Source of the DNA: Nocardioides luteus
GTDB lineage: Bacteria; Actinomycetota; Actinomycetes; Propionibacteriales; Nocardioidaceae
Assembly: GCF_000960475.2 (NCBI RefSeq)
Contig: NZ_JZDQ02000022.1
Coordinates: forward strand, 1-64,000
Direction of reading: 5' to 3'
Length of the DNA stretch: 64,000 bases
A program made the translations under genes and the position numbers. Below the pieces are notes generated by a model. That model was not told the origin of the DNA. It made no database searches and saw only the letters and a program-made list of their open reading frames with translations. Numbering within the stretch: the stretch's first letter is position 1; every line of letters begins with the position of its first letter. Below are positions 1,813 through 58,504 of this stretch, piece by piece.

Positions 1813-3423
1813 ATGAACACCGAATGGTGGCGCGACGCCGTCATCTACCAGGTCTACCCGCGCAGCTTCGCCGACAGCGACGGCGACGGCACCGGCGACC
1901 TTCCCGGGATTCGGTCACGGCTCCCCTACCTCCGCTCGCTGGGCGTGGATGCGGTCTGGCTGAGCCCGTTCTACGCCTCGCCGCAGGCCGACGGGGGCTA
2001 CGACGTCTCCGACTACCGTGCGGTCGACCCGCGCTACGGGACGCTCGACGACGCCCGCGCACTGATCTCTTCTGCCCACGAGCTCGGGCTCAAGATCATC
2101 GCCGACATCGTCCCCAACCACTCCTCCGACCAGCACGAGTGGTTCCAGCAGGCGCTGGCGGAAGGTCCCGGGTCGCCGATGCGCTCGCGCTACCACTTCC
2201 TGCCCGGACGCGGGCCGGACGGCTCGGAGCCACCCAACGACTGGGACTCGATCTTCGGCGGTCCCGCCTGGACCCGGGTCCCCGACGGCGAGTGGTATCT
2301 CCACCTCTTCGCCCCCGAGCAGCCCGACTTCAACTGGAACTCCCCCGAGGTCGCCGCCGAGTTCCTGGACATCCTGCGGTTCTGGCTCGACCTCGGCATC
2401 GACGGCTTCCGCATCGACGTCGCCCACGGCCTGGTCAAGGCCGAGGGCCTGCCGTCGATCGGTCACTCCGACCAGCTCCACCTGCTCGGCAACGACGTGA
2501 TGCCGTTCTTCGACCAGGACGGCGTCCACGAGATCTACCGGACGTGGCGGAAGGTGCTGTCGGACTATCCCGGACGGATCTTCGTCGCCGAGGCGTGGAC
2601 CCCGACCGTGGCGCGGTCGGCCAACTACGTACGCCCCGACGAGCTGCACCAGGCCTTCAACTTCGAGTACCTCGACACCGCCTGGGACGCCGCCGCGCTG
2701 CGCAAGGTCATCGACAGCTCCCTGGACGCGATGCGCCCGGTCGGCGCTCCGGCGACCTGGGTGCTCTCCAACCACGACGTCACCCGGCATGCGACCCGGT
2801 TCGCCAACCCTCCGGGGTCGGGGACCCAGATCCGTACGCCTGGTGACCGCGCTCTGGGGCTCCGGCGAGCTCGCGCGGCGACGCTGCTCATGCTCGCGCT
2901 CCCGGGGTCGGCGTACGTCTACCAGGGCGAGGAGCTCGGCCTCCCCGACGTCACCGACCTGCCCGACGAGGTCCGCCAGGACCCGTCCTTCCACCGTGCC
3001 AACGGCCAGGACGGGTTCCGCGACGGCTGCCGCGTGCCGCTGCCGTGGACCCGGACGGGTACGTCCTACGGCTTCGGCGACGGCGGCTCCTGGCTGCCCC
3101 AGCCCGACTCGTGGGGCGAGCTGAGCGTCGAGGCGCAGACCGGAGTCGAGGGCTCCACCCTCGAGCTCTACCGCTCGGCGCTGAAGATCCGGCGCGAGAC
3201 CCCCGGCCTCGGCGCCGGCGACGCCGTCACCTGGCACGACGAGGCCCCCGCCGGGGTGCTCTGGTTCGAGCGCTCTGGTTTCGTCTGCACCGTCAACACC
3301 ACCAAGGAGCCCGTACGCATCGCAGCACCTGGTGACGTACTCCTCTCCTCCTCGGGCCCCATGCCCGTCACCGACGGCGCCGCCGACCTCCCCGGCGACA
3401 CGACCGTCTGGTGGCAGATCTAG
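1813..3423 (+). CDS. GH13 alpha-glucosidase / oligo-1,6-glucosidase type
   Basis: Cytoplasmic alpha-glucosidase, 536 residues, starting at the ATG at 1813 with AAAGG about 12 nt upstream. The open frame extends further upstream but that part overlaps the permease. The N-terminus WWRDAVIYQVYPRSF is typical of the GH13 oligo-1,6-glucosidase/alpha-glucosidase group. The catalytic triad is visible: nucleophile D202 in GFRIDVAH, acid/base E260 in VAEAW, and D322 in SNHD. Placement behind two CUT1 permeases suggests hydrolysis of imported maltose, trehalose, sucrose-like or isomalto-oligosaccharides; the exact linkage cannot be read from sequence. The stop codon directly abuts a 21-bp repeat array. 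Confidence 0.93.
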   Translation: MNTEWWRDAVIYQVYPRSFADSDGDGTGDLPGIRSRLPYLRSLGVDAVWLSPFYASPQADGGYDVSDYRAVDPRYGTLDDARALISSAHELGLKIIADIVPNHSSDQHEWFQQALAEGPGSPMRSRYHFLPGRGPDGSEPPNDWDSIFGGPAWTRVPDGEWYLHLFAPEQPDFNWNSPEVAAEFLDILRFWLDLGIDGFRIDVAHGLVKAEGLPSIGHSDQLHLLGNDVMPFFDQDGVHEIYRTWRKVLSDYPGRIFVAEAWTPTVARSANYVRPDELHQAFNFEYLDTAWDAAALRKVIDSSLDAMRPVGAPATWVLSNHDVTRHATRFANPPGSGTQIRTPGDRALGLRRARAATLLMLALPGSAYVYQGEELGLPDVTDLPDEVRQDPSFHRANGQDGFRDGCRVPLPWTRTGTSYGFGDGGSWLPQPDSWGELSVEAQTGVEGSTLELYRSALKIRRETPGLGAGDAVTWHDEAPAGVLWFERSGFVCTVNTTKEPVRIAAPGDVLLSSSGPMPVTDGAADLPGDTTVWWQI

Positions 3424-3518
3424 CCGAGAAGTCACCCCCGTCGGCCGAGTGGGCACATCCGTGCCGACTCGGCCGACGTACGTGACGCCTCGGCCGACGG
3501 GGCTGACGCCTCGGCAGG
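3423..3518. repeat. 21-bp inverted tandem repeat array at convergent gene ends
   Basis: One forward unit (3423-3443), a second diverged forward unit from 3444, then reverse-orientation units at 3470-3490 and 3491-3511 and a partial at 3512. Reverse units begin CGGCCGACG and end TGACGCCT, each exactly 21 bp. The centre also forms a near-perfect hairpin (GGCCGAGTGGGCA against TGCCGACTCGGCC). The array fills the whole gap between the glucosidase stop and the convergent methyltransferase stop, so a bidirectional terminator role is plausible. Confidence 0.85.
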
Positions 3519-31459: not shown

Positions 31460-31506
31460 TGCCAATCAGTCCTTGTCTAGGTTAGTTGCGTCAGGTTGCC
31501 CGGAAA

Positions 31507-31968: not shown

Positions 31969-31989
31969 GGCGTCACCCTATCCAGGTGA

Positions 31990-32005: not shown

Positions 32006-32057
32006 ATGTTTCCGTACCGGCTTTCTAACGGTTTCTTTACCGAGCGTGTCTGCCGGG

Positions 32058-32855: not shown

Positions 32856-32908
32856 GGCGGCAAATCTATCGGGAGGGGTCGGTGGGCCCGGGGATAGGGT
32901 GGGAAGCT

Positions 32909-33709: not shown

Positions 33710-33743
33710 GACGCAGACCCCGGCTCCACTATCCTTGGCGGCG

Positions 33744-34988: not shown

Positions 34989-34994
34989 GGCCCT

Positions 34995-35352
34995 GCCGAG
35001 GCGTCAGGTAGGTCGGCCGAGGCGTCAGGTAGGTCGGGCGAAGCGTCACGTACGTCGGGCGAGACGTCACCTACGTCGGGCGAGACGTCACCTACGTCGG
35101 GCGAAGCGTCACGCGAGTGCCGTCTCGACCGACCTGAATGACGTCTCGGCCGACGTACGTGACGTCTCGGCCGCCCCATCTCAGACTCAGCCCGCGTACC
35201 CGCCCCAACCGATCTGTCGAGGCGTCACGTACGTCGGCCGAGTTGGCGGCAGTGTGACGTCTCGAGCGACGTACGTGACGTCTCGGCCGACGCGGTTGAC
35301 GTCTCGGCCGACGCGGCTGACGCCTCGGCCGACGCGGGTGACCTCTCGGCGC
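34995..35352. repeat. Large 21-bp inverted tandem repeat array between serB and sixA-like gene
   Basis: Fills the whole 364-bp gap between two convergent genes. Forward units at 34995, 35016, 35037, 35058 and 35079 (two identical pairs) and a partial at 35100; reverse units at 35126 and 35147 and a partial at 35168; then a second module with a forward unit at 35216 and a diverged one at 35237, and reverse units at 35263, 35284, 35305 and 35326. Each unit is exactly 21 bp. Forward units read like GCCGAGGCGTCA then a GTA-GTC tail; reverse units like CGGCCGACG then TGACGTCT. Two large hairpins can form. No gene is supported here. Confidence 0.9.
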
Positions 35353-35859: not shown

Positions 35860-35876
35860 GCGGCAACCCTATGGCC

Positions 35877-36650
35877 TCACGCTCCCAGCGAGTGATAGCC
35901 CCCGTCGACATGGATGATCTCGCCGGTGGTCGCCGGGAAGAAGTCCGAGATCAGCGCGCAGACGGCCTTGGCGGTCGGACCCTGGTCGGTGTTGTCCCAG
36001 CCCAGCGGCGCGCGCGTGCCCCAGCCCTCGTCGAGCTCCTCGAAGCCCGGGATCGCCTTGGCGGCGAGCGTCTTGAGCGGCCCCGCGGAGACGAGGTTGC
36101 AGCGGATCCCGTCGGGACCGAGGTCGCGGGCGAGGTAGCGCGAGGTCGACTCGAGGGCGGCCTTGGCGACACCCATCCAGTCGTACGCCGGCCATGCGAT
36201 CGTCGCGTCGAAGGTCAGCCCCACGATCGACGAGCCGGAGCCGAGCAGCGGGCGGGTAGCCATGGCCAGCGACTTGAGCGAGTAGGCGCTGACCTGGACG
36301 GCCTGGGAGACGTCGTCCCAGGGGCCGTCGAGGAACTTGCCGCCGAGGAGCGTCTCGGGGTTGCCGTACGCGATCGAGTGCACGACCCCGTCGAGCCGCT
36401 CGACGCCCTCGGCACGGAGCGCGTCGGCGAGGCCGTCGAGGTGCTCCTGGTTGGTCACGTCGAGGTCGAGGACCGGCGGCTCCTCGGGGAGCCGCTTCGC
36501 GATCCGCTTGGTGATCGACAGCGCACGGCCGAAGTTGGAGATCAGGACGCGGGCGCCCTGCTCCTGGGCGACCTTGGCCACCGCGAAACCGATCGAGGAG
36601 TCCATCGTGACCCCCGCGACGAGAACAGTCTTGCCGTCCAACAAACCCAT
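35877..36650 (-). CDS. fabI: Enoyl-ACP reductase (NADH), InhA/FabI type
   Basis: NADH-dependent enoyl-ACP reductase of type II fatty-acid synthesis, 257 residues. It starts MGLLDGKTVLVAGV and has the dinucleotide-site SSIGFAVAKVA. The catalytic pair is Y156 and K163 in AYDWMGVAKAA, the same spacing as in InhA. It directly follows fabG (2-bp gap), the mabA-inhA order of actinobacteria. The ATG at 36650 is chosen as it matches the family N-terminus. Confidence 0.95.
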   Translation of the reverse strand: MGLLDGKTVLVAGVTMDSSIGFAVAKVAQEQGARVLISNFGRALSITKRIAKRLPEEPPVLDLDVTNQEHLDGLADALRAEGVERLDGVVHSIAYGNPETLLGGKFLDGPWDDVSQAVQVSAYSLKSLAMATRPLLGSGSSIVGLTFDATIAWPAYDWMGVAKAALESTSRYLARDLGPDGIRCNLVSAGPLKTLAAKAIPGFEELDEGWGTRAPLGWDNTDQGPTAKAVCALISDFFPATTGEIIHVDGGYHSLGA

Positions 36651-36652
36651 GA

Positions 36653-37393
36653 TCAGTGCCCCATTCCAAGTCCGCCGTCGACCGGGATGACGGCCCCGGT
36701 CACATAACCCGCATCTGCCAACCACGTCACGGCCGAGGCCACCTCGTCCGGCGTCGCGTAGCGCGCCAGCGGGACCCGGTCCGTGATCGCCTTCTGCTGC
36801 TCATCGGTGAGCACCGCAGTCATCTCGGTCTCCACGAAACCCGGCGCGACCACGTTGGCGGTGATCCCCCGCGAGCCGAGCTCGCGAGCGAGCGAACGGG
36901 CCATGCCGACCAGCCCGGCCTTCGAGGCCGCGTAGTTGACCTGGCCCGGGTTGCCCATCAGCCCCACGACCGAGGAGATGAAGATGATCCGCCCGCGGCG
37001 CAGCCGCAGCATCCCCTTCGAGGCGCGCTTGGCGAGCCGGAAGGAGGCGGTCAGGTTGGTGTCGATCACCGAGGTGAAGTCGTCCTCCGACATCCGGAGC
37101 ACGAGGGTGTCCTTCGTGATCCCGGCATTGGCGACGAGGACCTCGACGGGTCCGTGGGCGGCCTCGGCGGCGGCGTACGCCTCCTCGACGGCAGCGGGGT
37201 CGGTGATGTCGCACACCAGGTCCAGGGCGCCCTCAGGCGCCCCGCCCTTGCGGGACGTCACGGCCACCTTGTCGCCGTTGGCCACGAAGGCCTCCGCGAT
37301 CGCCCGGCCGATGCCACGGCTGCCGCCGGTGACGAGCACCGAGCGGGGAGTCCGCGCTGGACTCTGCGTTGTGGGGTTTTCACTGTCAGTCAC
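36653..37393 (-). CDS. fabG: 3-oxoacyl-ACP reductase
   Basis: Short-chain dehydrogenase of fatty-acid elongation, 246 residues from the GTG at 37393, which gives nearly the MabA length; longer in-frame starts add non-conserved sequence. Cofactor motif GGSRGIGR (23-30), NANAG-equivalent ANAG (88-91), catalytic S140/S141, Y154 and K158 (NYAASK) are present. It is the first gene of the fabG-fabI-sixA-like operon and is divergent from the DUF3099 gene across 140 bp. Confidence 0.95.
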   Translation of the reverse strand: MTDSENPTTQSPARTPRSVLVTGGSRGIGRAIAEAFVANGDKVAVTSRKGGAPEGALDLVCDITDPAAVEEAYAAAEAAHGPVEVLVANAGITKDTLVLRMSEDDFTSVIDTNLTASFRLAKRASKGMLRLRRGRIIFISSVVGLMGNPGQVNYAASKAGLVGMARSLARELGSRGITANVVAPGFVETEMTAVLTDEQQKAITDRVPLARYATPDEVASAVTWLADAGYVTGAVIPVDGGLGMGH

Positions 37394-37533
37394 AGGCGCG
37401 ACGGTAGCGATTACTTCGGCGTACGACCAATGCCTTGGATTTGCTTGTGAGAACCCTCCAACGCCGCTCGGAGCGCCCCTGTTGGGACCACACCATTGAC
37501 CGATGCTCATCGGCCACGACCTAGACTGGCGGT

Positions 37534-37860
37534 ATGTCCAAGGCGCAACCGATCAGGATCACGACGGCCGGGCGCAGCCGCGCCGAGGACATCGCGATCC
37601 GTCAGAAGCGCTATGCCATCTCGATGTCGATCCGCTCGCTGTGCTTCATCGGTGCCGTGATCGCCGGTCTGGCCGGGATCGGCTGGCTGTGGCCGATCCT
37701 CATCGTGGCGGCCCTGATCCTGCCCTACATCGCGGTCGTGATGGCCAACGCCACCAACACGAAGAGCGACGAGATGAATCTGATGGACTCGCCCTACGGC
37801 CCCCGCCAGCTCTCCAGCGGCCGCGAGCAGCAGCTCAACGAGAAGCGCGAGGACGACTGA
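37534..37860 (+). CDS. DUF3099 membrane protein
   Basis: Small actinobacterial protein, 108 residues, with two hydrophobic helices (about 36-52 and 54-71) between a basic N-terminus (QPIRITTAGRSRAEDIAIRQ) and a polar C-terminus (KREDD). The pattern, including IRQKRYAISM, is that of DUF3099. Function unknown. Its stop overlaps the next ATG by one base (ATGA type), so the two are coupled. Confidence 0.85.
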   Translation: MSKAQPIRITTAGRSRAEDIAIRQKRYAISMSIRSLCFIGAVIAGLAGIGWLWPILIVAALILPYIAVVMANATNTKSDEMNLMDSPYGPRQLSSGREQQLNEKREDD

Positions 37861-38063
37861 TGGGCGCGCTCGACTCCGACCTGTGCTCGGCGAAGGGCTG
37901 CCAGGACCCCGGAACCTGGGAGCTGCAGTGGAACAATCCGAAGATCCACACGCCCGAGCGGCGTAAGATCTGGCTCGCGTGCGAGGCGCACAAGGAGTCG
38001 CTGAGCGACTTCCTGGGCGCGCGTGGGTTCCTCAAGGACGTCGTCGCCCATCAGCTGTCCTGA
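37860..38063 (+). CDS. Small Cys-containing conserved protein
   Basis: A 67-residue protein with a possible metal site: C-x4-C in LCSAKGC and CEAH in WLACEAHKESLSDFL. The sequence is well conserved in style (GTWELQWNNPKIH) among actinobacteria as a small hypothetical protein. It starts at the stop of the DUF3099 gene and is followed 15 bp later by a nucleoside hydrolase. Function unknown; a zinc-ribbon-like fold is a guess. Confidence 0.75.
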   Translation: MGALDSDLCSAKGCQDPGTWELQWNNPKIHTPERRKIWLACEAHKESLSDFLGARGFLKDVVAHQLS

Positions 38064-38078
38064 CAGAGAGGTCGTGCG

Positions 38079-39017
38079 ATGAAGCCGATCCCGGTGCTCC
38101 TCGACTGCGACCCCGGCCACGACGACGCCATCGCGATCCTGCTGGCGCTGGGCAGCCCTGCCGTCGACCTGCTCGGCATCACCACCACGTTCGGCAACTG
38201 CCGGGTCGACAAGGCGACCTACAACGCCCAGCGGATCCTGGCCCTGGCGCAGCGCCCCGACGTACCCGTCGCCTCCGGAGCCGCCGCGCCGCTGGCCGGC
38301 GAGGCCCACATCGGCGACTTCATCCACGGCGCGACCGGGATCGATGGCCCCGACCTGCCCGAGCCGCTCGCTCCCGCGGTCGAGCTCGGCGCGGTCGAGT
38401 TCCTGCGTACGTCGCTCCTGGCCGCACCCGCGCCCGTCACCGTCGTCGCCACCGGACCGATCACCAACGTCGCGCTGCTGCTGCGCGACCATCCCGAGGT
38501 CGGTGACCGGATCGCCGAGATCGTGTTCATGGGCGGTTCGATCGAGCGTGGCAACACCACCCCGGCGGCCGAGTTCAACGCCTACGCCGACCCCGAGGCC
38601 CTCGACGTCGTCCTCACCAGCGGGCTTCCGATCCGGATGGTCGGGCTCAACCTGTCCCACCAGGCGCTGGCCACCCCGGAAGTGGTCGCGCGGATGCGGG
38701 CCATGAACCACCCCGTCGGCCGGGCCTGCGCCGACCTGATGGGCTTCTTCGGCGGCACCTACTCCGACGTCTTCGACTTCGCCGCTCCCCCGGTCCACGA
38801 CCCCTGCACCATCGCCGCCCTCATCGACCCCGGCCTGATCACCTGGCACAAGTCGTTCGTCGCCGTCGAGACCGAAGGCCGCTGGACCCGCGGCGCCACC
38901 GTCGTCGACCTCCACGACCGCCTCGGCGAGCCGCCCAACGTCCAGGTCGGGATGACGCTCGACGTCGACGGGTACTGGGAGCTCGTCCTGGACGCGTTGG
39001 AGCGCGTTGGGTCCTGA
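38079..39017 (+). CDS. Inosine-uridine preferring nucleoside hydrolase
   Basis: N-ribohydrolase cleaving nucleosides to base and ribose, 312 residues. The calcium-binding signature DCDPGHDD sits at 9-16, with the family segments GITTTFGN, VATGPITNVALLL, MGGSIERGNTTPAAEFN and a C-terminal HDP. AGAGAGG precedes the ATG. It is the end of a three-gene run and is convergent with moaA across a 21-bp array. Confidence 0.94.
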   Translation: MKPIPVLLDCDPGHDDAIAILLALGSPAVDLLGITTTFGNCRVDKATYNAQRILALAQRPDVPVASGAAAPLAGEAHIGDFIHGATGIDGPDLPEPLAPAVELGAVEFLRTSLLAAPAPVTVVATGPITNVALLLRDHPEVGDRIAEIVFMGGSIERGNTTPAAEFNAYADPEALDVVLTSGLPIRMVGLNLSHQALATPEVVARMRAMNHPVGRACADLMGFFGGTYSDVFDFAAPPVHDPCTIAALIDPGLITWHKSFVAVETEGRWTRGATVVDLHDRLGEPPNVQVGMTLDVDGYWELVLDALERVGS

Positions 39018-39029
39018 CGGGCCTCACCC

Positions 39030-39129
39030 GCCGAGGCGTCAGGTACGTCGCGCGAGGCGTCACTCCGGTCGGCCGAGAGGGCATCGCGGTGACGCCTCGG
39101 CCGACGGGAGTGACGCCTCGACGGAAAGG
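39030..39129. repeat. 21-bp inverted tandem repeat array between nucleoside hydrolase and moaA
   Basis: Forward units at 39030-39050 and 39051-39071, a diverged turn from 39072, a reverse unit at 39098-39118 and a partial from 39119 that runs to the moaA stop (39130). Unit length, sequence (GCCGAGGCGTCA and TGACGCCT cores) and inverted layout match the arrays near 3.4 and 35 kb. Confidence 0.88.
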
Positions 39130-40149
39130 TCAGCCGCCGATCGCGGACATCGGACGGTCGGGCTGCAGGAAGCCGAGATCGTCGATGCCGTGACCCGCGC
39201 GCTTGCCGGCCATCGCGGTGACCCACCTCGCGGCGAGATCGCCGTCGGAGGCGCCGGCACGGAGCGGCGTACGCAGGTCCGACTCGGAGCGCGCGAACAG
39301 GCAGTCGCGCACCTGCCCGTCGGCGGTGAGGCGGACCCGGTCGCAGTCCCCGCAGAACGGGCGGGTGACGGAGGCGATGATGCCGACCTTGGCGGGACCG
39401 CCGTCGACGTAGAAGAGCTCGGCCGGGGCGCTGCCACGGGGCTCCTCGGCGGGGGTCAGCTCGAAGGCCGTGGAGAGCGCCGCGAGGGTCTCGTCGGCGG
39501 TCACCATGGTGTCGCGCGACCACCCGTGCTGGGCGTCGAGGGGCATCTGCTCGATGAAGCGCAGCTCGTAGCCCCGCTCGAGCGACCAGCCCAGCAGCTC
39601 GGCGGCCTGGTCGTCGTTGACGCCCCGCAGCAGGACGGCGTTGATCTTGATCGGGCCCAGACCGGCATCCGCGGCGGCCTCCAGACCGGCGACCACGTCC
39701 GCCAGCCGGTCGCGCCGGGTGATCTCCGCGAAGGTGTCGGGCCGGATCGAGTCGAGCGAGACGTTGACCCGGTCGAGCCCGGCCTCCGCCAGCGAGCCCG
39801 CCATCTTGGCCAGACCGAGCGCGTTCGTCGTGATCGACAGCTCTGCGTCGGGAGCGACCTCGCGGGTGCGGGCGACGATCGAGACCAGCCCACGCCGCAC
39901 CAGCGGCTCGCCACCGGTGAACCGCACCTCCTGGACACCGAGCCGACCGGTGGCGACGCCGATCAGCCGCACCACCTCGTCGTCGGTGAGCACCTCGTCG
40001 CCGGGCAGCCAGTCGAGGCCCTCGGGCGGCATGCAATAGGTGCACCGCAGGTTGCAGCGGTCGGTCAGAGAGACCCGCAGATCGGTCGCGACCCGGCCGA
40101 ACCGGTCGACGAGCCTCTGCTGGGTCTGATCTGTCGGGGAGGCGGTCAT
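39130..40149 (-). CDS. moaA: GTP 3',8-cyclase (molybdenum cofactor)
   Basis: Radical-SAM enzyme for the first step of molybdopterin synthesis, 339 residues from the ATG at 40149 (a GTG one codon earlier is possible). The first cluster cysteines are C32, C36 and C39 in RCNLRCTYCM; the C-terminal cluster is CGDCDRVRL with a further Cys in VRDCLF. Ends with a normal MoaA tail apart from the GG usually needed for activation (SAIGG is present). No other mo- gene is adjacent. Confidence 0.95.
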   Translation of the reverse strand: MTASPTDQTQQRLVDRFGRVATDLRVSLTDRCNLRCTYCMPPEGLDWLPGDEVLTDDEVVRLIGVATGRLGVQEVRFTGGEPLVRRGLVSIVARTREVAPDAELSITTNALGLAKMAGSLAEAGLDRVNVSLDSIRPDTFAEITRRDRLADVVAGLEAAADAGLGPIKINAVLLRGVNDDQAAELLGWSLERGYELRFIEQMPLDAQHGWSRDTMVTADETLAALSTAFELTPAEEPRGSAPAELFYVDGGPAKVGIIASVTRPFCGDCDRVRLTADGQVRDCLFARSESDLRTPLRAGASDGDLAARWVTAMAGKRAGHGIDDLGFLQPDRPMSAIGG

Positions 40150-40215
40150 CACACCAGTCTAGGCAGCCGCGACCCGGAACGTGAGCAGCGACCGCATGCC
40201 AGTTAGTCTCATACG

Positions 40216-41103
40216 GTGAGTTCGTTCCGTTTCCTGCTCAGCCGTCGCTGGGCCGGTTTCACGGTCTTCGTGCTGATCCTGGCCTACGGCACCTGGTGGC
40301 TCGGCGAGTGGCAGTTCGACCGTCTCGCCGACCGGAAGGCCAGCAACCAGATCGTCCGGACCAACGAGCACGCCGATCCCGTACCCGTCCAGGATGTTCT
40401 GTCCACCGGCGACAAGGTGGCCGAGAAGGACGAGTGGCGGCGGGTGACCGCAACCGGGACGTACGCGGTCGACGACACGATCATCTGGCGCTACCGCACC
40501 CCCGACGAGGAGAAGGGCGTCGACATCGTCGTCCCGCTGGTGCTCGACGACGGCACCGCGGTGCTGGTCGACCGCGGCTGGGTGCAGACCGAGTCGCAGG
40601 AGAAGTTCGACGACGTCCCCGCGCCACCGGCCGGCGAGGTCACGATCAGCGGCTGGGTGCGCGCCGACGGCACCGGCGACTCCACCGACGTCGCCCAGGT
40701 CGACGGCTACCACGCCACCCGGGCGCTCTCCTCGGCGCAGGTCGCGAAGGTGGTCGACGAGCCGCTGCTGACCGGCTGGCTCCACCTCGACACCGAGTCC
40801 CCCGAGCCGGCCACGCGGCTGCGCAAGGCCGATCTCCCCGAGCTCGACAACGGCCCCCACTTCTTCTACGGGCTGCAGTGGTGGTTCTTCGGCATCCTCG
40901 CGGTCGCCGGGTTCTTCTACCTGATGTACGACGAGCGGCGTACGCAGAGCCGGGGCGAGCCGGCATCGGACGAGGACACTCCGACCGGTGACGAGAAGAC
41001 CGACGAGCGGGCCCGCAAGAAGGCCGCCAAGCTCGCCCAGAAGCAGGCCGTGAAGGCGGCCTACCAGGCTGCGTACGAGAAGGAGCGCAGCGGGAAGAGC
41101 TGA
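40216..41103 (+). CDS. SURF1-family cytochrome oxidase assembly protein
   Basis: Membrane protein of the SURF1 family that aids haem a3 insertion into cytochrome c oxidase, 295 residues, GTG start. Helix one is at about 12-30 (AGFTVFVLILAYGTWWLGEWQ) and helix two near 217-236 (FYGLQWWFFGILAVAGFFYL); between them is the extracytoplasmic domain with GTY and VLVDRGWV motifs. The tail is Lys/Ala-rich. It is convergent with the ABC exporter gene 4 bp away. Confidence 0.92.
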   Translation: MSSFRFLLSRRWAGFTVFVLILAYGTWWLGEWQFDRLADRKASNQIVRTNEHADPVPVQDVLSTGDKVAEKDEWRRVTATGTYAVDDTIIWRYRTPDEEKGVDIVVPLVLDDGTAVLVDRGWVQTESQEKFDDVPAPPAGEVTISGWVRADGTGDSTDVAQVDGYHATRALSSAQVAKVVDEPLLTGWLHLDTESPEPATRLRKADLPELDNGPHFFYGLQWWFFGILAVAGFFYLMYDERRTQSRGEPASDEDTPTGDEKTDERARKKAAKLAQKQAVKAAYQAAYEKERSGKS

Positions 41104-41107
41104 CCGC

Positions 41108-43000
41108 CTAGCGCCGGAACTGCGTCTCGTACAGCTCCGCGTAGAGCCCGCCGTCGGCGAGCAGCGACTCGTGGGTGCCGGACTCGACGACCCGGCCGGC
41201 CTCGATCACGAGGATGCGGTCCGCGGCTCGGATGGTGGAGAGCCGGTGGGCGATGACGATCGAGGTACGTCCCGCCAGCGCGGCGTCCAGGGCGGTCTGC
41301 ACCGCGGCCTCGGACTCGGAGTCGAGGTGGGCGGTGGCCTCGTCGAGCACCACGATGTGGGGAGCCTTGAGCAGCAGCCGGGCGATCGCGAGCCGCTGAC
41401 GCTCGCCGCCGGAGAGGCGGTAGCCGCGGTCACCGACGACGGTGTCGAGACCGTCCGGCAGGCCCTTGATGACCCCGGCGACCTGGGCCGCCTCCAGGGC
41501 CGCCCAGATCTCGTCGTCGGAGGCGCCGGGGCGGGCGTAGAGCAGGTTGCCGCGCACGGTGTCGTGGAACATGTGGGCGTCCTGGGTGACGTAGCCGACC
41601 GCGGCCTCGAGCGACTCCAGGGTCACGTCGCGGACGTCGAGACCACCGACCTCGACCGCGCCGGAGCGTACGTCGTAGAGCCGCGCGATCAGGTGGGTGA
41701 TCGTCGACTTCCCGGCGCCCGAAGGGCCGACCAGGGCGACCATCTCACCCGGTTCGGCCACGAAGTCGATGTCGGAGAGCACCTCGCGCACCTCGCGGCT
41801 CTCCGGCCTCGCGATCGTCTCCAGGGAGGCGAGCGAGACCTCGTCGGCACGCGGGTAGGTGAAGGCGACGTGACGGAACCGCACCGACGCGGCGTCCGCC
41901 GGCACCTCGGCAGCGTCCGGCTTCTCCTTGATCAGCGAAGGCAGGTCGAGGACCTCGAAGACGCGGTCGAAGCTGACCAGCGCGGTCATCACGTCGATGC
42001 GTACGTTGGAGAGCGCCTGCAGCGGCCCCAGCAGCCTCACCAGCAACAGACCGAGCGCGGTCAGGGTGCCGAGCGTGACGTCGCCACGGATGACCAGCCA
42101 GCCGCCGAAGCCGTAGACCAGGGCGGTGGCCAGCGCCGGGACCATCTGCATCGTCGCCCCGAACAGGCGGGTCAGCAGCGCGATCCGGATCCCCAGGCGG
42201 CGTACGACGTCGGCACGCTGCGCGAACGCGGCGTCCTCCTCCTCGCGGCGGCCGAAGAGCTTGAGCAGCAGGGCGCCGCCGACGTTGAACCGCTCGGTCA
42301 TCGTGGTGGCCAGCGCCGCGTTGCCGTCCATCTGCTCGCGGGTCAGGCCGGCCAGCCGGCGCCCCACCCAGCGCGAGGTCAGGAACAGGATCGGGAACAG
42401 CGCGACGCACATCAGCGTCACCTGCCACGACAGCACGAGCATCGCTGCGCCGACCACGACGAGGGAGATCATGTTGGAGACGCTGTTGGACAGCGTCGAG
42501 GTGAAGGCCCGTTGCGCGCCGAGCACGTCGGTGTTGAGCCGGCTCACCAACGCACCGGTCTGCGCCCGGGTGAAGAAGGCCAGCGACTGTCGCTGGACGT
42601 GCCCGAAGACCTGGGTGCGGAGGTCGAAGATGAGACCCTCGCCGATGCGTGTGGAGAGCCATCCGGAGACGATCCCGAATCCCATGTCGATCACGGCCAC
42701 CAGTGCCATCGCCGCGGCCACCCAGATGACCACCGAGAGGTCCTTCTGGAGCACCCCGTCGTCGATGAGTCGCTGGGTCAGCAGCGGGGTCACCACCACG
42801 ATCGCCGCGTCGAAGACGGTGAACAGCAGGAAGGCGGTGATCAGCGCGCGGTGGGGCCTCGCGTAGGAGACGACGCGCTTCAGGGTGCCCTTCGGCAACC
42901 CGCGCTGGAGAACCGTACGGTCGGCGCGCAGGTTGCGCATGATCCCGCCGCCGCCCATCGCCCCGCCGGACGCACCGAAGCCTGGACCCATTTGTGACAC
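41108..43000 (-). CDS. ABC exporter, fused permease-ATPase (MsbA/MDR type)
   Basis: Half-transporter exporter, 630 residues: a six-helix transmembrane domain (about 45-330) and a nucleotide-binding domain with Walker A GPSGAGKST, signature LSGGERQR and Walker B IVVLDEATAHLD. The GTG at 43000 or the ATG three codons later may start it. The N-terminus is Gly-rich (GFGASGGAMGGGG). Likely a homodimer exporting drugs or lipids; substrate unknown. Divergent from the conservon across 220 bp. Confidence 0.92.
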   Translation of the reverse strand: MSQMGPGFGASGGAMGGGGIMRNLRADRTVLQRGLPKGTLKRVVSYARPHRALITAFLLFTVFDAAIVVVTPLLTQRLIDDGVLQKDLSVVIWVAAAMALVAVIDMGFGIVSGWLSTRIGEGLIFDLRTQVFGHVQRQSLAFFTRAQTGALVSRLNTDVLGAQRAFTSTLSNSVSNMISLVVVGAAMLVLSWQVTLMCVALFPILFLTSRWVGRRLAGLTREQMDGNAALATTMTERFNVGGALLLKLFGRREEEDAAFAQRADVVRRLGIRIALLTRLFGATMQMVPALATALVYGFGGWLVIRGDVTLGTLTALGLLLVRLLGPLQALSNVRIDVMTALVSFDRVFEVLDLPSLIKEKPDAAEVPADAASVRFRHVAFTYPRADEVSLASLETIARPESREVREVLSDIDFVAEPGEMVALVGPSGAGKSTITHLIARLYDVRSGAVEVGGLDVRDVTLESLEAAVGYVTQDAHMFHDTVRGNLLYARPGASDDEIWAALEAAQVAGVIKGLPDGLDTVVGDRGYRLSGGERQRLAIARLLLKAPHIVVLDEATAHLDSESEAAVQTALDAALAGRTSIVIAHRLSTIRAADRILVIEAGRVVESGTHESLLADGGLYAELYETQFRR

Positions 43001-43220
43001 CCCGTCACCTTAGTCGCCCGGTCACGTACGGCTGCGCCTAGGATGCACCGTCGAAATATGGTCAAAATCACCCGGATCAGGTGACCAAGCGCTCTGTTGG
43101 TGGTATGAAGTGGAGCGCGTGTGTGCGCCGGTCTCCGGGGGCTGGATCAGGTTTCGTCCAAACCGCCCGGAACCCGCGGGTCCATGCCCTGACTGCTCGC
43201 CCCCACACCAGGTGCCCCAC

Positions 43221-44807
43221 ATGACCCGACCATTCCTGGTCCGGCTCCACCGAGCCGGTCCATGGTTCTGCAGTACCGCGATCCTCCTCTTCGTCGCCCT
43301 CTCCCCCGTCATCTTCGTCACCGCCTCCGGCGACGAGTGGCTCTGGCGCTGGCTCCTCGCCGGCGTACCGGTCGTCGCGCTCACCCTCTGGCTCACCGCG
43401 ATGGCCTACGACCGCACCCCGGCCGAGGCGTCAGCCCGGTCGGCCGAGAAGTCGGGTACGCCGGCCGAAGCGTCAGCTACGTCGGCCGACTTGGCATCGA
43501 CTGACGCGTCGAACGACGCAAGTGACGTTTCGGCCGTCGTAGGTGACGGCTCAGCCGACGCAAGTGACGCCTCGGCCGACGTGCCTGACGGCTCGGCCGA
43601 CGTACGTGACAGCTCGGCCGACGTAGCCGACGCCTCGGCAGGGGTGGACGGGCGGCGCGGGGAGGCCGGGATGCGGGTGGCGGTGCTGTCGCTGTCTCGC
43701 AAAGTGCAGGCGTCGGCGCACCGGATCCAGGAGGAGTCGACGCGGATGGTGGCCAAGTTCCCGGCCGAGCCGGATGTGCTCGAGGCGGGGATGCGGGTCG
43801 ACCACGCGGCGGCGCAGCAGGCGCGGCTGGCGCAGAGCATCGCCACGCTGTGCGGGGAGCAGCCCGGACAGCACTGGCGTGACCCGCTCGCGATCGCGGA
43901 CGTCGTACGCGGCGCGGCCGGCCGGATCACCGCCTACCGCCGGGTCCGGGTGGAGGGCGACCCGCCGGTCGCGGTCCAGGGCGCCCACGTCGAGCCGCTG
44001 ATCCACCTCGTCGCCGAGCTCCTCGCCAACGCGACCCAGTCCTCGCCGCCGGCGACGGAGGTGCTGGTCACGATCCGTTCCGTACGCCGCGGGGCGGCCC
44101 TCGAGATCGACGACGCGGGCGTCGGCATGGACGAGACCAACCTGGCCTGGATGCGGGAGATCGCCTCCGGCACCCGGCAGGTGCGCCTGCAGGACCTCGG
44201 CGAGATACCGCAGACCGGCCTCGCGGTGGTCGGCACCTACGTACGCCGCCACGGTTTCCGCGTGGACCTGACCGAGTCGGTCCACGGCGGCCTGCGGGTC
44301 GCCGTCCTCGTGCCCGAGGCGATGACGACCCCGCTGACCCCGGCCGTGCCCGCGCCGGTCGGGCCGCGTACGCCGCCCTCGATCCCGGTCCCGCCCTCGA
44401 CCCCGGTTCCTGCCTCGCTCCTGGCCCAGGCTCCGAAGGCACCGCCCGCCTCGACGACGCCGGCCTGGCCGGTCCACAACGCCGCCAAGGCACCCGATCC
44501 GATTCCCGGGCGTAACGAGCCTTCGTTGTTCACCTCCGACGGCCTGCCGCAGCGCCGTTCGAAGCGCGGCCAGCGTTTCGCGACCGGCCATCAGCAGGCC
44601 GTGAGCCAGCCCATCCCGGCGCGCCCAGAGCCGACCGCCGAGCAGGCCGGCGCGTGGATGAGCAGCTTCCTCAGCACCCCGGCCACCCCGGCGACCGGCA
44701 CCACCATCCCACCCGTCAACGACCGCCAGAACGACCGCCAGAACGACCGCACCACCGCGGAGACCGATGCCGCACCCGAGAACCACTGGAGGAACCATGA
44801 CCGATGA
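43221..44807 (+). CDS. cvnA: Conservon histidine-kinase-like sensor (CvnA type)
   Basis: Membrane sensor ATPase heading a conservon, 528 residues from the ATG at 43221. Two helices lie at about 16-35 and 43-61. Residues about 68-142 form a low-complexity Ala/Ser/Asp linker made of 7-residue repeats (SADVxDx) encoded by the 21-bp repeat family. A dimerisation-like helix follows, then an HATPase domain (N-box ELLANATQ, G-box IDDAGVGMD). The C-terminus is long and Pro-rich. In Streptomyces, CvnA-D form a membrane complex resembling GPCR/G-protein signalling. The last 11 bp overlap cvnB. Confidence 0.9.
   Translation: MTRPFLVRLHRAGPWFCSTAILLFVALSPVIFVTASGDEWLWRWLLAGVPVVALTLWLTAMAYDRTPAEASARSAEKSGTPAEASATSADLASTDASNDASDVSAVVGDGSADASDASADVPDGSADVRDSSADVADASAGVDGRRGEAGMRVAVLSLSRKVQASAHRIQEESTRMVAKFPAEPDVLEAGMRVDHAAAQQARLAQSIATLCGEQPGQHWRDPLAIADVVRGAAGRITAYRRVRVEGDPPVAVQGAHVEPLIHLVAELLANATQSSPPATEVLVTIRSVRRGAALEIDDAGVGMDETNLAWMREIASGTRQVRLQDLGEIPQTGLAVVGTYVRRHGFRVDLTESVHGGLRVAVLVPEAMTTPLTPAVPAPVGPRTPPSIPVPPSTPVPASLLAQAPKAPPASTTPAWPVHNAAKAPDPIPGRNEPSLFTSDGLPQRRSKRGQRFATGHQQAVSQPIPARPEPTAEQAGAWMSSFLSTPATPATGTTIPPVNDRQNDRQNDRTTAETDAAPENHWRNHDR
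43422..43644. repeat. 21-bp inverted repeat array inside cvnA, in frame
   Basis: Three forward units (43422, 43443, 43464), a diverged turn from 43485, then six reverse units (43510, 43531, 43552, 43573, 43594, 43615) and a partial from 43636. All are 21 bp, so each adds seven codons and the reading frame is preserved. The sequence and forward-then-reverse layout match the intergenic arrays. Confidence 0.9.
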
Positions 44808-45183
44808 GAACAGCTGGATGCTGGAGCTGGTCGCGGGAGTACGCGGCGTACGTCATGTCGTGGTCCTCTCCGCCGACGGCCTCGTCCGGGTCCGCACGAG
44901 CCACACGCCGCGCGAGGAGGCCGACAAGCTCGCCGCGGCGTGCGCCGGCCTGACCTCGCTCGGCCACGGGATCAGCCGCCAGTTCGGCGTCGACGCCCAT
45001 CCTCGGCAAGTGATGGTCGAGTTCAACGGCGGCTTCCTGTTCATCCGTGGCGCCGGCGACGGCTCCCGCCTCGCGGTGGTCACCGAGATGAGCATCGACC
45101 CGGCGCTGGTCGCCCAGCAGATGCAGGCGACCGTCCTGATGATCGGGGAGCGCGCGATGAGCACCCCGAGGCGCTCGTTCTGA
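44797..45183 (+). CDS. cvnB: Roadblock/LC7-domain protein (CvnB type)
   Basis: Roadblock/LC7 fold, 128 residues, the putative GTPase-activating or scaffold subunit of the conservon. LELVAGVRGVRHVVVLSADGL and GGFLFIRGAGDGSRLAVV fit the family strands. GGAGGA lies 6 nt before the ATG. The start is within cvnA and cvnC begins 4 bp after the stop, so expression is tightly coupled. Confidence 0.93.
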   Translation: MTDENSWMLELVAGVRGVRHVVVLSADGLVRVRTSHTPREEADKLAAACAGLTSLGHGISRQFGVDAHPRQVMVEFNGGFLFIRGAGDGSRLAVVTEMSIDPALVAQQMQATVLMIGERAMSTPRRSF

Positions 45184-45187
45184 GTCG

Positions 45188-45544
45188 ATGCCCGGCGCCC
45201 GCGAAGACGACTACGTCGACCACCCGATCCGGTCCTACGTCCGGACGGGCGGCCGTGCCCGGCCGACCCACCGGCTGACGCCGGCGACGCTGCTGATCGG
45301 CCACACCGACCCGGCTTCCACGTCGGTGGGCCGGCAGGAGCGCGAGGTCCTCTCCCAGTGCCTCGGCGTGATCTCGATGGCCGAGATCGCCGTCCATCTC
45401 GGCCAGCCGGTCAGCGTCCTCGCGGTGATCGCCTCGGACATGATCGACGCCGGCCTGATCGGCGTACGCCCCGACAGCGACACCGCCACCGGCCCCTCCC
45501 GCGAAACCCTTCAGAAGGTCCTGCATGCTCTCAACCACCTCTGA
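45188..45544 (+). CDS. cvnC: DUF742 protein (CvnC type)
   Basis: Conservon third component, 118 residues. The DUF742 pattern is clear: IRSYVRTGGRARPTH, then a winged-helix-like region (VGRQEREVLSQCLGVISMAEIAVHL...PVSVLAVIASDMIDAGLI) in which the helix normally carries SVAEIAAHL. It overlaps cvnD by 20 bp. It may bind DNA or the GTPase; not settled for the family. Confidence 0.93.
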   Translation: MPGAREDDYVDHPIRSYVRTGGRARPTHRLTPATLLIGHTDPASTSVGRQEREVLSQCLGVISMAEIAVHLGQPVSVLAVIASDMIDAGLIGVRPDSDTATGPSRETLQKVLHALNHL

Positions 45545-46112
45545 CGACAACCACTACCTGGCCCCCACCGTCGTCGAGTCGGTCAAGATCCTGGTGGTCG
45601 GCTCCTTCGGGGTCGGCAAGACCACGCTGATCGGCTCGGTCAGCGAGATCGACCCGCTCCGCACCGAGGAGACGATCACCGAGGCCAGCGAGGGGATCGA
45701 CGCGGTCGATTCCACCCCGGAGAAGACGACCACCACGGTCGCGATGGACTTCGGCCGGATCACCCTGACCGACGAGATCGCGCTCTACCTGTTCGGCACC
45801 CCCGGCCAGCGCCGCTTCTGGGACCTGTGGTCCGGCCTCGCCGAGGGCGCCGCCGGCGCCCTGGTCCTGGTCGACACCCGGCGTCTCGAGGACTCCTTCG
45901 AGGTGCTGGACCAGCTCGAGACACGTACGTCCCTGCCGTTCGTGGTCGCCATCAACCAGTTCCCGGGCGCGCCGAACTACGAGCCCGAGCAGATCCGCAC
46001 GGCGCTCGACCTCGACGACGAGACGCCGATCGTGGTGTGCAACGCCAAGAACCGCAACGCCTGCGTCCGCGCGCTCGCCGCTCTCGTGCGCCACGCCCTG
46101 AAGACGCACTGA
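45525..46112 (+). CDS. cvnD: Conservon small GTP-binding protein (CvnD type)
   Basis: Ras-like GTPase of the bacterial conservon group, 195 residues. G1 P-loop GSFGVGKTT (26-34), G3 FGTPGQRRFWDLW and a degenerate G4 (AINQF in place of NKxD) are visible, the last being usual for this group. The N-terminus (about 1-18) is polar. It is fourth gene of the operon; the P450 starts 14 bp later. Confidence 0.94.
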   Translation: MLSTTSDDNHYLAPTVVESVKILVVGSFGVGKTTLIGSVSEIDPLRTEETITEASEGIDAVDSTPEKTTTTVAMDFGRITLTDEIALYLFGTPGQRRFWDLWSGLAEGAAGALVLVDTRRLEDSFEVLDQLETRTSLPFVVAINQFPGAPNYEPEQIRTALDLDDETPIVVCNAKNRNACVRALAALVRHALKTH

Positions 46113-46126
46113 TCCGCCATCGACCG

Positions 46127-47386
46127 ATGAAAACAGGCCACCCGATGACCCCGATGACCCCCACCCGCACCGTACGTCTCGCCGACCTCACCGATCTCGT
46201 CCATGCGCCCGACACCGTCGGCCCGCGGGCGCGGGAGGTGCACGCACGGCTCCGGGCCGAGTGGGGTCCGGTGGCCCCGGGCGAGCTCTCCCCCGGCGTA
46301 CGCGTCTGGTTCGCGATGGGCTATGCCGAGTTCAGCGAGGTCATCCGCAACGAGGAGGTCTTCTCCCGCAACGGCGACAACTGGAGCGCGGTGCAGGAGG
46401 GCAAGATCCTGCCGGACATGCCGATCTACCCGTTCGTGACCACGCGGCAGAACTCCTTCCACAACGACGGCGAGCTCCGCCGGCGGCTGCGTTCGCCCGT
46501 GGACCGAGCCCTCTCCCGAGTCGACGAGCACGGCTACGCCGCCCAGGTACGCGGCATCTGCAACGACCTCGTCGACGACATGCTCGAGCGGGGTGAGGCC
46601 GACCTGGTCCAGGACTACGCCGTGCTGATCCCGCTGCTCTCGGTCGCGGCGATGTTCGGCATGGGCCAGGAGGTCGGCGACTCCATGCGCAAGGCGGCCC
46701 ACAAGGTCCTCGGCGGTGGTCAGCTCGCCCAGGAGGGGGTCATCGAGCTCGCCGTCGAGATCGTCGACCACATCGCCAAGCGCCGCAGGGAACCCCAGGA
46801 CGACCTCACCTCCCACCTGATCGACGACCCCGGCCTGTGGGACGACAACGAGGTCATGGAGGCGATGATCGTGATGATCATCGCCGGCAACGAGCTGACG
46901 ATCGCGACGATCACCCAGACGCTGCTGCTGATGCTCTCCGACGAGCGGTTCGCCGGCCGGTTGCGCGGCGGGCGGCTCGACGTCGACCAGGCGATCGAGG
47001 AGGTGATGTGGCGCGACCCGCCCTGCTACAACATCACCCCGCGCTTCGCGCTGCGCGACGTCGAGCTCGGCGGTCAGCTGATCCGCAAGGGTGACGCCGT
47101 GGTGCCGTGCATCGCGGCCGCCAACCTCGACCCGGTGATGACCGGCGACGACCCCTGGCTCGAGATCGGCAACCGCGCCCACATGTCGTGGAGCGCCGGC
47201 CCGCACGCCTGCCCGGCCATGCGGCCGGGCACGATCATCGTCCAGGCAGCCGTACGCACCGTCCTGGAGCGCCTCCCCGAGGTCACCCTCGCGGTGCCGG
47301 CCGACCGGGTCGAGCGCAACACCGACTCGCTCTCCTACCGCTACCCGACCTCGATGCCGGTCAGGTTCGTCCGCACCCTGACCTGA
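46127..47386 (+). CDS. cvnE: Cytochrome P450, conservon type (CYP157-like), K-helix lacks ExxR
   Basis: P450 encoded at the end of the conservon, 419 residues. Haem ligand C362 sits in SWSAGPHACPAM. The I-helix reads AGNELT (253-258) where AGxxTT is usual, so the oxygen-activating Thr position is altered. In the K-helix the expected ExxR is replaced by EEVMW (291-295) followed by R296, recalling the CYP157 family of Streptomyces, known to lack ExxR. The start at 46127 is one of two close ATGs (46145 is the other). Reaction unknown; it may act as a redox or ligand sensor for the conservon. Confidence 0.92.
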   Translation: MKTGHPMTPMTPTRTVRLADLTDLVHAPDTVGPRAREVHARLRAEWGPVAPGELSPGVRVWFAMGYAEFSEVIRNEEVFSRNGDNWSAVQEGKILPDMPIYPFVTTRQNSFHNDGELRRRLRSPVDRALSRVDEHGYAAQVRGICNDLVDDMLERGEADLVQDYAVLIPLLSVAAMFGMGQEVGDSMRKAAHKVLGGGQLAQEGVIELAVEIVDHIAKRRREPQDDLTSHLIDDPGLWDDNEVMEAMIVMIIAGNELTIATITQTLLLMLSDERFAGRLRGGRLDVDQAIEEVMWRDPPCYNITPRFALRDVELGGQLIRKGDAVVPCIAAANLDPVMTGDDPWLEIGNRAHMSWSAGPHACPAMRPGTIIVQAAVRTVLERLPEVTLAVPADRVERNTDSLSYRYPTSMPVRFVRTLT

Positions 47387-47389
47387 GGC

Positions 47390-48988
<1,599 letters not shown>

Positions 48989-49051
48989 TACCGTCACTAG
49001 TGTATGGGCGGGGCACTCGGCTCCACACATCACCACCTCCAGGGGGACAAG

Positions 49052-50008
49052 ATGCGGTTCAACCCGAAGGCCAGACTCGACACCAGCCGGACGTCCGGCG
49101 GCGGTGGCGGTGGCGGGTTCGGCGGCGGAGGTGGCGCCCGCATCCCGATCCCCGGTGGCAAGGCGAGCGGCGGGATCGGCACCGTCATCGTGCTGCTGAT
49201 CTTCTTCCTCATCACCCAGTGCACCGGCGTCGGACCCCAGGTCCTCGGCGACGGCAGCGGCTCGACGTCGGTCGGCACCGGCACCTTCGGCGGCCTCCAG
49301 GCGGCCGACGGCGGCGAGACCGGCGACTTCGGCTCCTGCAAGACCGGCGAGGACGCCAACAACGACGAGAACTGCGCGTTCGTCGCTCTGGAGAACTCGC
49401 TGACCGGCTACTGGGACTCCCAGCCCGACCTCGCCGGCCGGTTCCAGCCCGAGCAGTCCGTGGTGATCTTCGCCGACCAGGTCCAGACCGGTGGCTGCGG
49501 CTCCGCGTCGAGCGCGGTCGGGCCGTTCTACTGCCCCTCCGACCAGACCATCTACCTCGACCCGACCTTCTTCGACTCCATCTTCGAGCAGCTCGGCGGC
49601 AAGGACACCACCTTCGTACGCGCCTACGTGCTCGCCCACGAGTACGGCCACCACATCCAGAACCTGCTCGGCACCATGGGCCAGGTCCGCACCCAGCAGG
49701 GCCCCGACTCCGACGCCGTCCGCCTGGAGCTGCAGGCCGACTGCTACGCCGGGATGTGGACCGCCGCCGCCGAGGGCGACGGGTTCATCGTGGACATCAC
49801 CGACCAGGACATCTCCGAGGGCATCTCCGCCGCCAAGACCGTCGGCGACGACCACATCCAGGCAAAGACCACCGGCCGCGTGGACACCTCGCAGTACACC
49901 CACGGCTCCTCCGAGCAGCGGATCGCCTGGTTCCAGAAGGGCATGACCACCCCCGACTCCATCGCGGGCTGCGACACGTTCAAGGCGCGGGATCTCGACC
50001 GGCCGTAG
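49052..50008 (+). CDS. Neutral zinc metallopeptidase, YpfJ/KPN_02809 family
   Basis: Membrane-anchored putative zinc peptidase, 318 residues. A Gly-rich cytosolic N-terminus (16-28) is followed by one helix (about 43-57) and an extracytoplasmic domain with the zinc motif H196-E-Y-G-H200-H. Two Cys pairs (C96/C108, C149/C161) could form disulfides. AGGGGG precedes the ATG. Peptidase activity has not been shown for much of this family. A double hairpin follows the stop. Confidence 0.9.
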   Translation: MRFNPKARLDTSRTSGGGGGGGFGGGGGARIPIPGGKASGGIGTVIVLLIFFLITQCTGVGPQVLGDGSGSTSVGTGTFGGLQAADGGETGDFGSCKTGEDANNDENCAFVALENSLTGYWDSQPDLAGRFQPEQSVVIFADQVQTGGCGSASSAVGPFYCPSDQTIYLDPTFFDSIFEQLGGKDTTFVRAYVLAHEYGHHIQNLLGTMGQVRTQQGPDSDAVRLELQADCYAGMWTAAAEGDGFIVDITDQDISEGISAAKTVGDDHIQAKTTGRVDTSQYTHGSSEQRIAWFQKGMTTPDSIAGCDTFKARDLDRP

Positions 50009-58487: not shown

Positions 58488-58504
58488 AGCACCGGGCGCG
58501 TCAC

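What the first reader, a model, noticed from the sequence alone, without database searches (positions are those of the whole stretch)
43422..43644. The same 21-bp inverted array lies in frame inside cvnA and encodes a 7-residue repeat linker
Three forward and six reverse 21-bp units in the coding region produce SADVxDx-type repeats between the membrane hairpin and the kinase-like domain. Because 21 is a multiple of 3, insertion or expansion keeps frame. This suggests the repeat can invade coding sequence, as described for some REP-like and RPE elements, giving a low-complexity linker of about 75 residues.
Basis: partly seen in the sequence, partly recalled or inferred. Interest (0 to 1): 0.8.

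Follow-up and report, generated by a model that had tools for sequence, protein, structure and literature searches.

The report
Inverted 21-bp repeat inside cvnA
A short inverted DNA repeat that usually sits between converging genes in one group of Nocardioides bacteria also lies in frame inside several of their genes, including a signalling gene, and some related species carry a differently spelled repeat at the very same places.

Summary
Window 43422-43639 has three forward units, a 29-bp hairpin cap and six reverse 21-bp units, in frame in cvnA. It is one copy of a genome-wide family: 46 clusters were examined, mostly forward units, 29/30-bp cap, reverse units. The usual site is the gap between converging genes (unselected 464 kb: 10 of 34 convergent gaps, 2 of 142 tandem, 0 of 56 divergent). 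Seven clusters lie inside six genes. The family is abundant in 8 of 215 Nocardioides genomes.

Insertion into coding DNA is supported for an Lhr-like helicase: two outgroups empty, nine of nine related genomes filled. It is not shown for cvnA: all 10 orthologues have a linker; seven carry this repeat, two another 21-bp inverted array (family B) in the same frame, one neither. The Lhr slot holds A, B, an A/C mixture or an unrelated palindrome, by species.

Frame depends on the cap as well as on 21 = 3x7: with the forward arm in frame 0, a 30-bp cap would bring TGA into the reverse arm; coding copies have 29 bp.

Best reading: a REP/RPE-like element, new variant, mobiliser unknown.

The parts
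43221..44807 (+). cvnA: sensor-kinase-like first gene of a conservon operon, 528 aa
   Evidence: ORF; Pfam HATPase_c E=1.1e-9; the name follows gene order and the description of conservons in an abstract listed
43422..43484 (+). forward arm, three 21-bp family-A units, reading frame 0 (AEASxxS type)
43485..43513 (.). 29-bp hairpin cap between the arms
   Evidence: 30 bp in 21 of 29 non-coding arrays
43514..43639 (-). reverse arm, six 21-bp family-A units, sense frame 2 (DxxDxSA type)
43992..44318 (+). HATPase_c domain of CvnA, residues 258-366
44767..45183 (+). cvnB, Roadblock/LC7
   Evidence: Pfam Robl_LC7 E=2.7e-20
45188..45544 (+). cvnC, DUF742
   Evidence: Pfam E=5.1e-18
45525..46112 (+). 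cvnD, small GTPase-like
   Evidence: Pfam ATP_bind_1 E=3.6e-30
46127..47386 (+). cytochrome P450 next to the conservon
   Evidence: Pfam p450 E=5.1e-8
3423..3515 (.). sibling family-A array filling a convergent gap (one forward, two reverse units)
34995..35350 (.). sibling family-A double array filling a convergent gap almost from stop to stop
39030..39122 (.). sibling family-A array in the convergent gap beside the ORF at 39130-40152

Best explanation
The cvnA repeat is one copy of an interspersed palindromic element of one group of Nocardioides that resembles REP/BIME and Rickettsia palindromic (RPE) elements. Shown: a typical copy is a run of 21-bp units, a 29/30-bp hairpin cap and an inverted run of units; in the own genome the usual site is the gap between converging genes, often filled almost from stop codon to stop codon; some copies lie in frame inside genes; at several sites the occupying repeat family differs between species. 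Inferred: in convergent gaps it acts as a two-way 3'-end hairpin or terminator; it spreads by copying into gaps and permissive protein linkers or loops; arms grow and shrink by tandem duplication; in coding copies selection keeps a frame combination without stops. In cvnA it gives a variable, probably disordered 7-residue-repeat spacer between the N-terminal hydrophobic segments and the kinase-like domain, tolerated rather than required in sequence.
For: 46 array clusters in the own genome, sampled from one DNA search. Unselected 464-kb scan: units in 10 of 34 convergent gaps of >=30 nt, 2 of 142 tandem, 0 of 56 divergent (Fisher p 1.1e-6 and 2.3e-5). Strong stems in 27 of 34 convergent gaps, 20 of 142 tandem, 2 of 56 divergent. 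Restriction: 28-135 exact cores in each of 8 Nocardioides genomes, 0-2 in the other 207 of 215; the only matches to a longer pattern among 391 genomes drawn from the order are three of those eight. Lhr site empty in 2 outgroups, filled in 9 of 9 related genomes; the best WH2_Lhr stretch starts at profile position 52 just after the array. Caps are 29 bp in 5 of 5 coding arrays with a canonical cap against 7 of 29 non-coding ones (p 0.003). Unit number differs among cvnA orthologues. RNA fold z -10.35 and -8.44.
Against: Facing units do not co-vary: identity at variable positions is 0.48 for facing pairs, 0.47 for non-facing pairs of the same site, 0.55 between sites, and arms of one site are less alike than in all 3000 permutations; the two halves of the cap match no better than between sites (9.0 against 8.97 of 12). 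This speaks against selection for exact pairing. In G147 family A is hardly concentrated in convergent gaps (2 of 28 against 4 of 126 tandem). No Y1/RAYT-type transposase in the own genome; no mobiliser found; target duplications were not tested. No empty orthologue for cvnA. Terminator activity is untested. Gene context comes from a gene caller written here.
Confidence: 0.6

Rival explanations
1. Local origin: the cvnA linker grew in place by slippage of a low-complexity coding repeat and only resembles the intergenic arrays by chance or composition.
For: Linkers of signalling proteins can grow by slippage (general knowledge); G001 has an Ala/Pro/Thr/Glu-rich linker without an array.
Against: Same 21-bp unit, same inverted order and same kind of cap as dozens of intergenic copies; a genome-wide consensus is not expected from local slippage.
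Confidence: 0.1
2. Signal sequence with dialects: the units are recognition sites of a trans-acting factor (for example DNA uptake, as with Neisseria DUS, or a chromosome-organising protein), and sites change spelling in concert when the factor changes.
For: Families A, B and C share period, start (GCCGA) and register but differ elsewhere, and differ in number between species. Inverted pairs linked to terminators, two dialects in one genome and a UGA in one frame are described for DUS (PMC3630211, abstract and passages). A ComEC-type protein is encoded.
Against: 345 units (score >=10, singles included) in the 42 stretches taken, mostly tandem, not thousands of single sites; only 2 of 16 clusters in the 464-kb sample are single units. 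The ComEC family rings in 10 of 14 control genomes, so it says little. No receptor known.
Confidence: 0.12
3. Protein-level function: the 7-residue repeat is a selected spacer of CvnA, and the DNA repeat is kept for the peptide.
For: A linker is present in all 10 orthologues, and the arrays that could be read use a stop-free frame combination.
Against: The sequence is different in G147/G217 (AESVEVA / PTSADSA) and in G001; measured lengths range from 58 to 97 residues; the same DNA repeat makes other peptides in other frames (PTGVTSR in the PdxR-like gene).
Confidence: 0.15

Closest known systems
REP / BIME elements, including CGTC-tagged REPs without a known transposase (PMC3733652; abstract and passages seen)
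   Same: Short palindromic repeats, often paired in opposite orientation, mostly between unidirectional or converging genes, some inside genes; the CGTC group is said to lack a dedicated transposase.
   Different: Here tandem 21-bp units in each arm with a fixed cap; no Y1/RAYT in this genome; the words Nocardioides and Actinobacteria do not occur in that paper's main text.
Rickettsia palindromic elements (RPE)
   Same: REP-like palindromes inserted in frame within genes (one sentence in PMC3733652; original papers not read).
   Different: RPE copies are single palindromes (recalled); here multi-unit arrays with variable unit number, mainly intergenic, with other families at the same site in other species.
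DNA uptake sequence dialects of Neisseriaceae (PMC3630211; abstract and passages seen)
   Same: Genome-wide repeat whose spelling differs by lineage, inverted pairs linked to terminators, copies in permissive sites, stop codon in one frame of most dialects.
   Different: Tens of multi-unit arrays instead of thousands of short sites; no evidence on uptake here.
Palindromic amphipathic repeat coding sequence (PMC2996958; title and start of abstract in a search listing only)
   Same: A palindromic DNA repeat that codes a repeat in proteins.
   Different: Not compared by sequence; described there as distributed among other bacteria and eukaryotic microbes.
Mycobacterial interspersed repetitive units (recalled, no call)
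   Same: Actinobacterial tandem arrays of variable number near gene ends.
   Different: Not inverted arrays with a hairpin cap (recalled).

Membership tests
REP/BIME elements | many dispersed copies of a short palindromic unit | tested here: met
   115 exact cores in the own genome; 46 clusters examined
REP/BIME elements | mostly extragenic, downstream of genes | tested here: met
   own genome: 10/34 convergent, 2/142 tandem, 0/56 divergent gaps; in G147 weaker, 2/28 and 4/126
REP/BIME elements | cognate REP-associated tyrosine transposase (Y1_Tnp) in the genome (GTAG class) | tested here: not met
   0 matches for PF01797 in the own genome, 97.9% complete; the control rang in 5 of 14 genomes
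REP/BIME elements | GTAG or CGTC tag, unpaired, at one end of the palindrome | not tested
   CGTC occurs in the unit, but its place relative to a hairpin foot was not examined
Rickettsia palindromic elements | in-frame insertion in genes, empty in relatives | tested here: met
   Lhr: empty in G149 and G063, filled in 9 of 9 related genomes; not met for cvnA
Rickettsia palindromic elements | sequence homology to an RPE family | not tested
   no RPE sequence was compared
Rfam RNA families | match above gathering score | tested here: not met
   0 matches in window 30000-50000
DNA uptake sequence | enhances transformation through a receptor | not testable with these tools
   needs an experiment; only a ComEC-type gene was found
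Conservon operon | kinase-like, roadblock, unknown-domain and small GTPase genes together | tested here: met
   Pfam HATPase_c, Robl_LC7, DUF742, ATP_bind_1 in this order; definition from an abstract listed

The most novel reading that the evidence does not exclude
Permissive positions in proteins (cvnA linker, Lhr WH2 region, CydDC and AtuA interdomain linkers) are exchangeable slots: whole palindromic repeat families (A, B, C and an unrelated fourth one) replace each other there in frame, tending to follow the family that is common in each genome, through an unidentified copying process such as ectopic conversion between arrays or a dedicated trans-acting factor.
Probability: 0.3. Interest if true: 0.78.

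Novelty: new variant of a known kind. Interest (0 to 1): 0.6.

Why it matters
It gives a case in Actinomycetota of an interspersed hairpin repeat that lies inside genes and stays in frame, with an insertion that can be placed on the branch leading to one group (Lhr) and with relatives that carry a different repeat at the same site. That makes it possible to ask how bacterial repeat families spread and turn over, and how much of bacterial linker sequence is tolerated repeat DNA rather than selected protein. It also warns that the linker of this CvnA should not be read as a conserved functional motif.

Tried and rejected
RAYT/Y1 transposase as mobiliser: none found in the own genome. Known RNA family: none in Rfam at gathering score for 30-50 kb. 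Covariation of the two arms as proof of a selected hairpin: tested and not found; the arms are even less alike than in permutations. AlphaFold model of CvnA with five close orthologues: mean pLDDT 36, not usable. Recombination of flanks as the cause of the family switch at cvnA: G147 and G217 flanks are 93-94% identical to the own gene on both sides, close to the regional average of 92-93%, so no clear sign. The species tree is weakly resolved (one node 0.604): the protein tree pairs G147 with the own genome (0.999), nucleotide identity pairs G147 with G217 (94.3% against 93.2%), so switches were not counted. Search with L128:11640-11980 used wrong coordinates (it hit the neighbouring gene) and its result was used only to place the neighbouring gap in three other genomes. 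Literature: no paper held both 'Nocardioides' and 'interspersed repeat' or 'Nocardioides', 'tandem repeat' and 'palindromic'; searches on in-frame palindromic elements, uptake dialects, conservons, RPE and convergent terminators gave the listings. This covers only that library and those words.

Full report
What is there. The window is from a Nocardioides genome (5.76 Mb, 86 contigs; named relatives). cvnA runs from 43221 to 44807 and is followed by Roadblock, DUF742, GTPase-like and P450 genes, that is a conservon operon. Between two hydrophobic N-terminal stretches (read from the sequence; no membrane predictor was run) and the HATPase_c domain (residues 258-366) lie three forward 21-bp units (43422-43484), 29 bp (43485-43513) and six reverse units (43514-43639).

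Family. Searching the own genome with this array gave 106 matches. I fetched 38 further places and scored units with a position weight matrix (345 units at score >=10 in 42 stretches, singles included). The gap is itself hairpin-like: a stretch like unit positions 1-12, a 5-6 nt loop, and a stretch like their reverse complement. Consensus unit: GCCGAGRCGTCASNYMSGTCG. The cvnA array folds as one long hairpin (z -10.35); the double array at 34989-35352 also folds strongly (z -8.44).

Where it sits. In the sampled places, 19 clusters lie between converging genes, 12 between tandem genes, 1 between diverging genes, 7 inside genes, and 7 at contig ends where a neighbour is missing (46 in all). In 14 of the 19 convergent cases the array ends within 12 nt of both genes. 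Because that sample was chosen by similarity, I also scanned 464 kb of the own genome without selection: units occur in 10 of 34 convergent gaps of at least 30 nt (58 convergent pairs), 2 of 142 tandem gaps (317 pairs) and 0 of 56 divergent gaps (57 pairs) (Fisher p 1.1e-6 and 2.3e-5). In G001 the counts are 6 of 32, 2 of 104 and 0 of 52; in G147, where family A is rarer, 2 of 28, 4 of 126 and 0 of 67, so the bias is not seen clearly there. The window's other three arrays (3423-3515, 34995-35350, 39030-39122) are all in convergent gaps. Convergent gaps in general are rich in strong stems (own genome 27 of 34, against 20 of 142 tandem and 2 of 56 divergent), so a two-way terminator role is likely but untested.

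Distribution. The core TCGGCCGAGRCGTCA occurs 28-135 times in each of 8 of 215 Nocardioides genomes and 0-2 times in the other 207; the backwards control is 0-1. Among 391 genomes drawn from the order the only matches to a longer pattern are in three of those eight. I call these eight plus G001 'the group' from shared gene order and 84-96% protein identity over 17 genes; that they form a single branch was not tested with outgroups.

Coding copies. Seven clusters lie in six genes: cvnA, an Lhr-like helicase, CydDC (twice), an AtuA-like protein, a PdxR/MocR-like regulator, and the C-terminal tail of a protein without a Pfam match. Frames: in cvnA, Lhr, the larger CydDC array and the tail protein the forward arm is in frame 0 and the reverse arm in frame 2, joined by a 29-bp cap. 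With a 30-bp cap the reverse arm would read CGA CGN NNN TGA. The smaller CydDC array has the forward arm in frame 1 and the reverse arm in frame 0, and its reverse unit has CGA in place of TGA. Caps are 29 bp in 5 of 5 coding arrays with a canonical cap, against 7 of 29 non-coding ones (21 have 30 bp, one 27) (Fisher p 0.003). The AtuA array has a 19-bp gap and the PdxR array only reverse units; they are not in that count. The six cvnA orthologues with family A and a readable cap (own one included) have 29 bp.

Orthologues of cvnA. Ten were seen: own, G001, G014 (N. turkmenicus), G061 (N. albus), G126, G147, G176 (MAG-46), G217, G218 (sp. YR527) and N. luteus (partly masked). Seven have family A, with 3+6 (own), 3+2 (G014), 5+3 (G218), 3+4 (G176), 4+3 (G061), 3+5 (G126) and, in N. 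luteus, at least 4+5 units. G147 and G217 have a different 21-bp inverted array, family B (consensus GCCGAGTCCGTAGTTGTGGCG), in the same frame, reading AESVEVA ... PTSADSA; in G147 it starts at the same residue. G001 has an Ala/Pro/Thr/Glu-rich linker with one unit-like stretch. No empty orthologue was found, so insertion at this gene is not proved.

Empty and exchanged sites elsewhere. In the Lhr-like helicase, G149 and G063 (Nocardioides outside the group) have 10 and 11 residues where the own gene has 84; nine of nine genomes of the group have an insert, next to or inside the WH2_Lhr domain. The insert is family A in five, three A-scoring and one C-scoring unit in G001, family B in G217, and in G147 and G014 a palindrome unrelated to these that recurs elsewhere in G147. 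The CydDC linker holds family B in G147, G217 and G014, family C in G001, and A in four others at DNA level; G176 was seen only as an A-type peptide. In CydDC, AtuA and PdxR the outgroups have other linker sequences, and the AtuA outgroup matches are only about 44-50% identical, so those sites do not prove insertion. AtuA is A-type in seven, B-scoring in G061, not measured at DNA level in G001. Convergent gap 34989-35352 holds A in the own genome, G014, G061, G126, G176 and G218, B in G217, mainly C in G001, and only 32 nt without units in G147; gap 39018-39129 holds A in five of the eight genomes with a gap, B in G217, one B unit in G147, mainly C in G001, and is absent in G014, where the two stop codons overlap. 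Genome-wide, B cores number 35 in G217, 18 in G147, 16 in G176, 12 in G014, 6 in G061, 3 in G218, 2 in the own genome, 0 in G126 and G001; outside the group only G118 has any (3).

How it probably works. The pattern fits a REP/RPE-like element: dispersed palindromes, mostly at gene ends, tolerated in frame in linkers and loops. Adjacent units of one arm resemble each other (0.67 at variable positions) more than forward and reverse units of different sites (0.55), which fits growth by tandem duplication. The two arms of one site are less alike than expected (0 of 3000 permutations as low); I have no proven explanation, but long perfect palindromes are known to be unstable (recalled). The way copies spread is unknown: no Y1/RAYT transposase in the own genome.

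Limits. Gene context rests on a simple gene caller written here. Phylogeny is weakly resolved. A, B and C share GCCGA and the 21-bp register, so B and C may be diverged relatives of A rather than replacements from elsewhere; only the palindrome in Lhr of G147 and G014 is clearly unrelated. The C matrix also scores many A units. At a lower score cut-off, 17 of 113 units in the own genome and 13 of 56 in G001 score as B only. The AlphaFold model was not usable.

Noticed in passing
window 58488-58619: Another hairpin repeat (CGCCGAGTCGGCTC...GAGCCGACTCGGC) fills a convergent gap; its motif CGAGTCGGCTC occurs 48 times in 359 kb of G001 and 11 times in 464 kb of the own genome.
   Followed up: partly
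L201 (G147) and L203 (G014), Lhr gene; G147 C1 near 1,328,877: A palindrome unrelated to the 21-bp families (GTGTCGAGACCAACAC ... GTGTTGGTCTCGAC) sits in frame in Lhr; its 14-nt motif occurs 10 times at six places in 439 kb of G147, once in G001, not in 464 kb of the own genome.
   Followed up: partly
own genome, 34 capped arrays: The two arms of one array differ from each other more than expected by permutation, mainly at unit positions 15-17.
   Followed up: partly
L199, 450-629 (G117): The convergent gap matching window 34989-35352 holds a different tandem hairpin of 43 bp in a Nocardioides outside the group.
   Followed up: no
own genome contig ends (L007, L014, L029, L031, L032, L036, L042): Seven array clusters lie at contig ends, so the arrays may break the assembly and counts are lower bounds.
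   Followed up: no
window 53387-53727 and 30778-30906: Other tandem repeats with different periods (12-36 bp, and 33/66 bp), not examined further.
   Followed up: no
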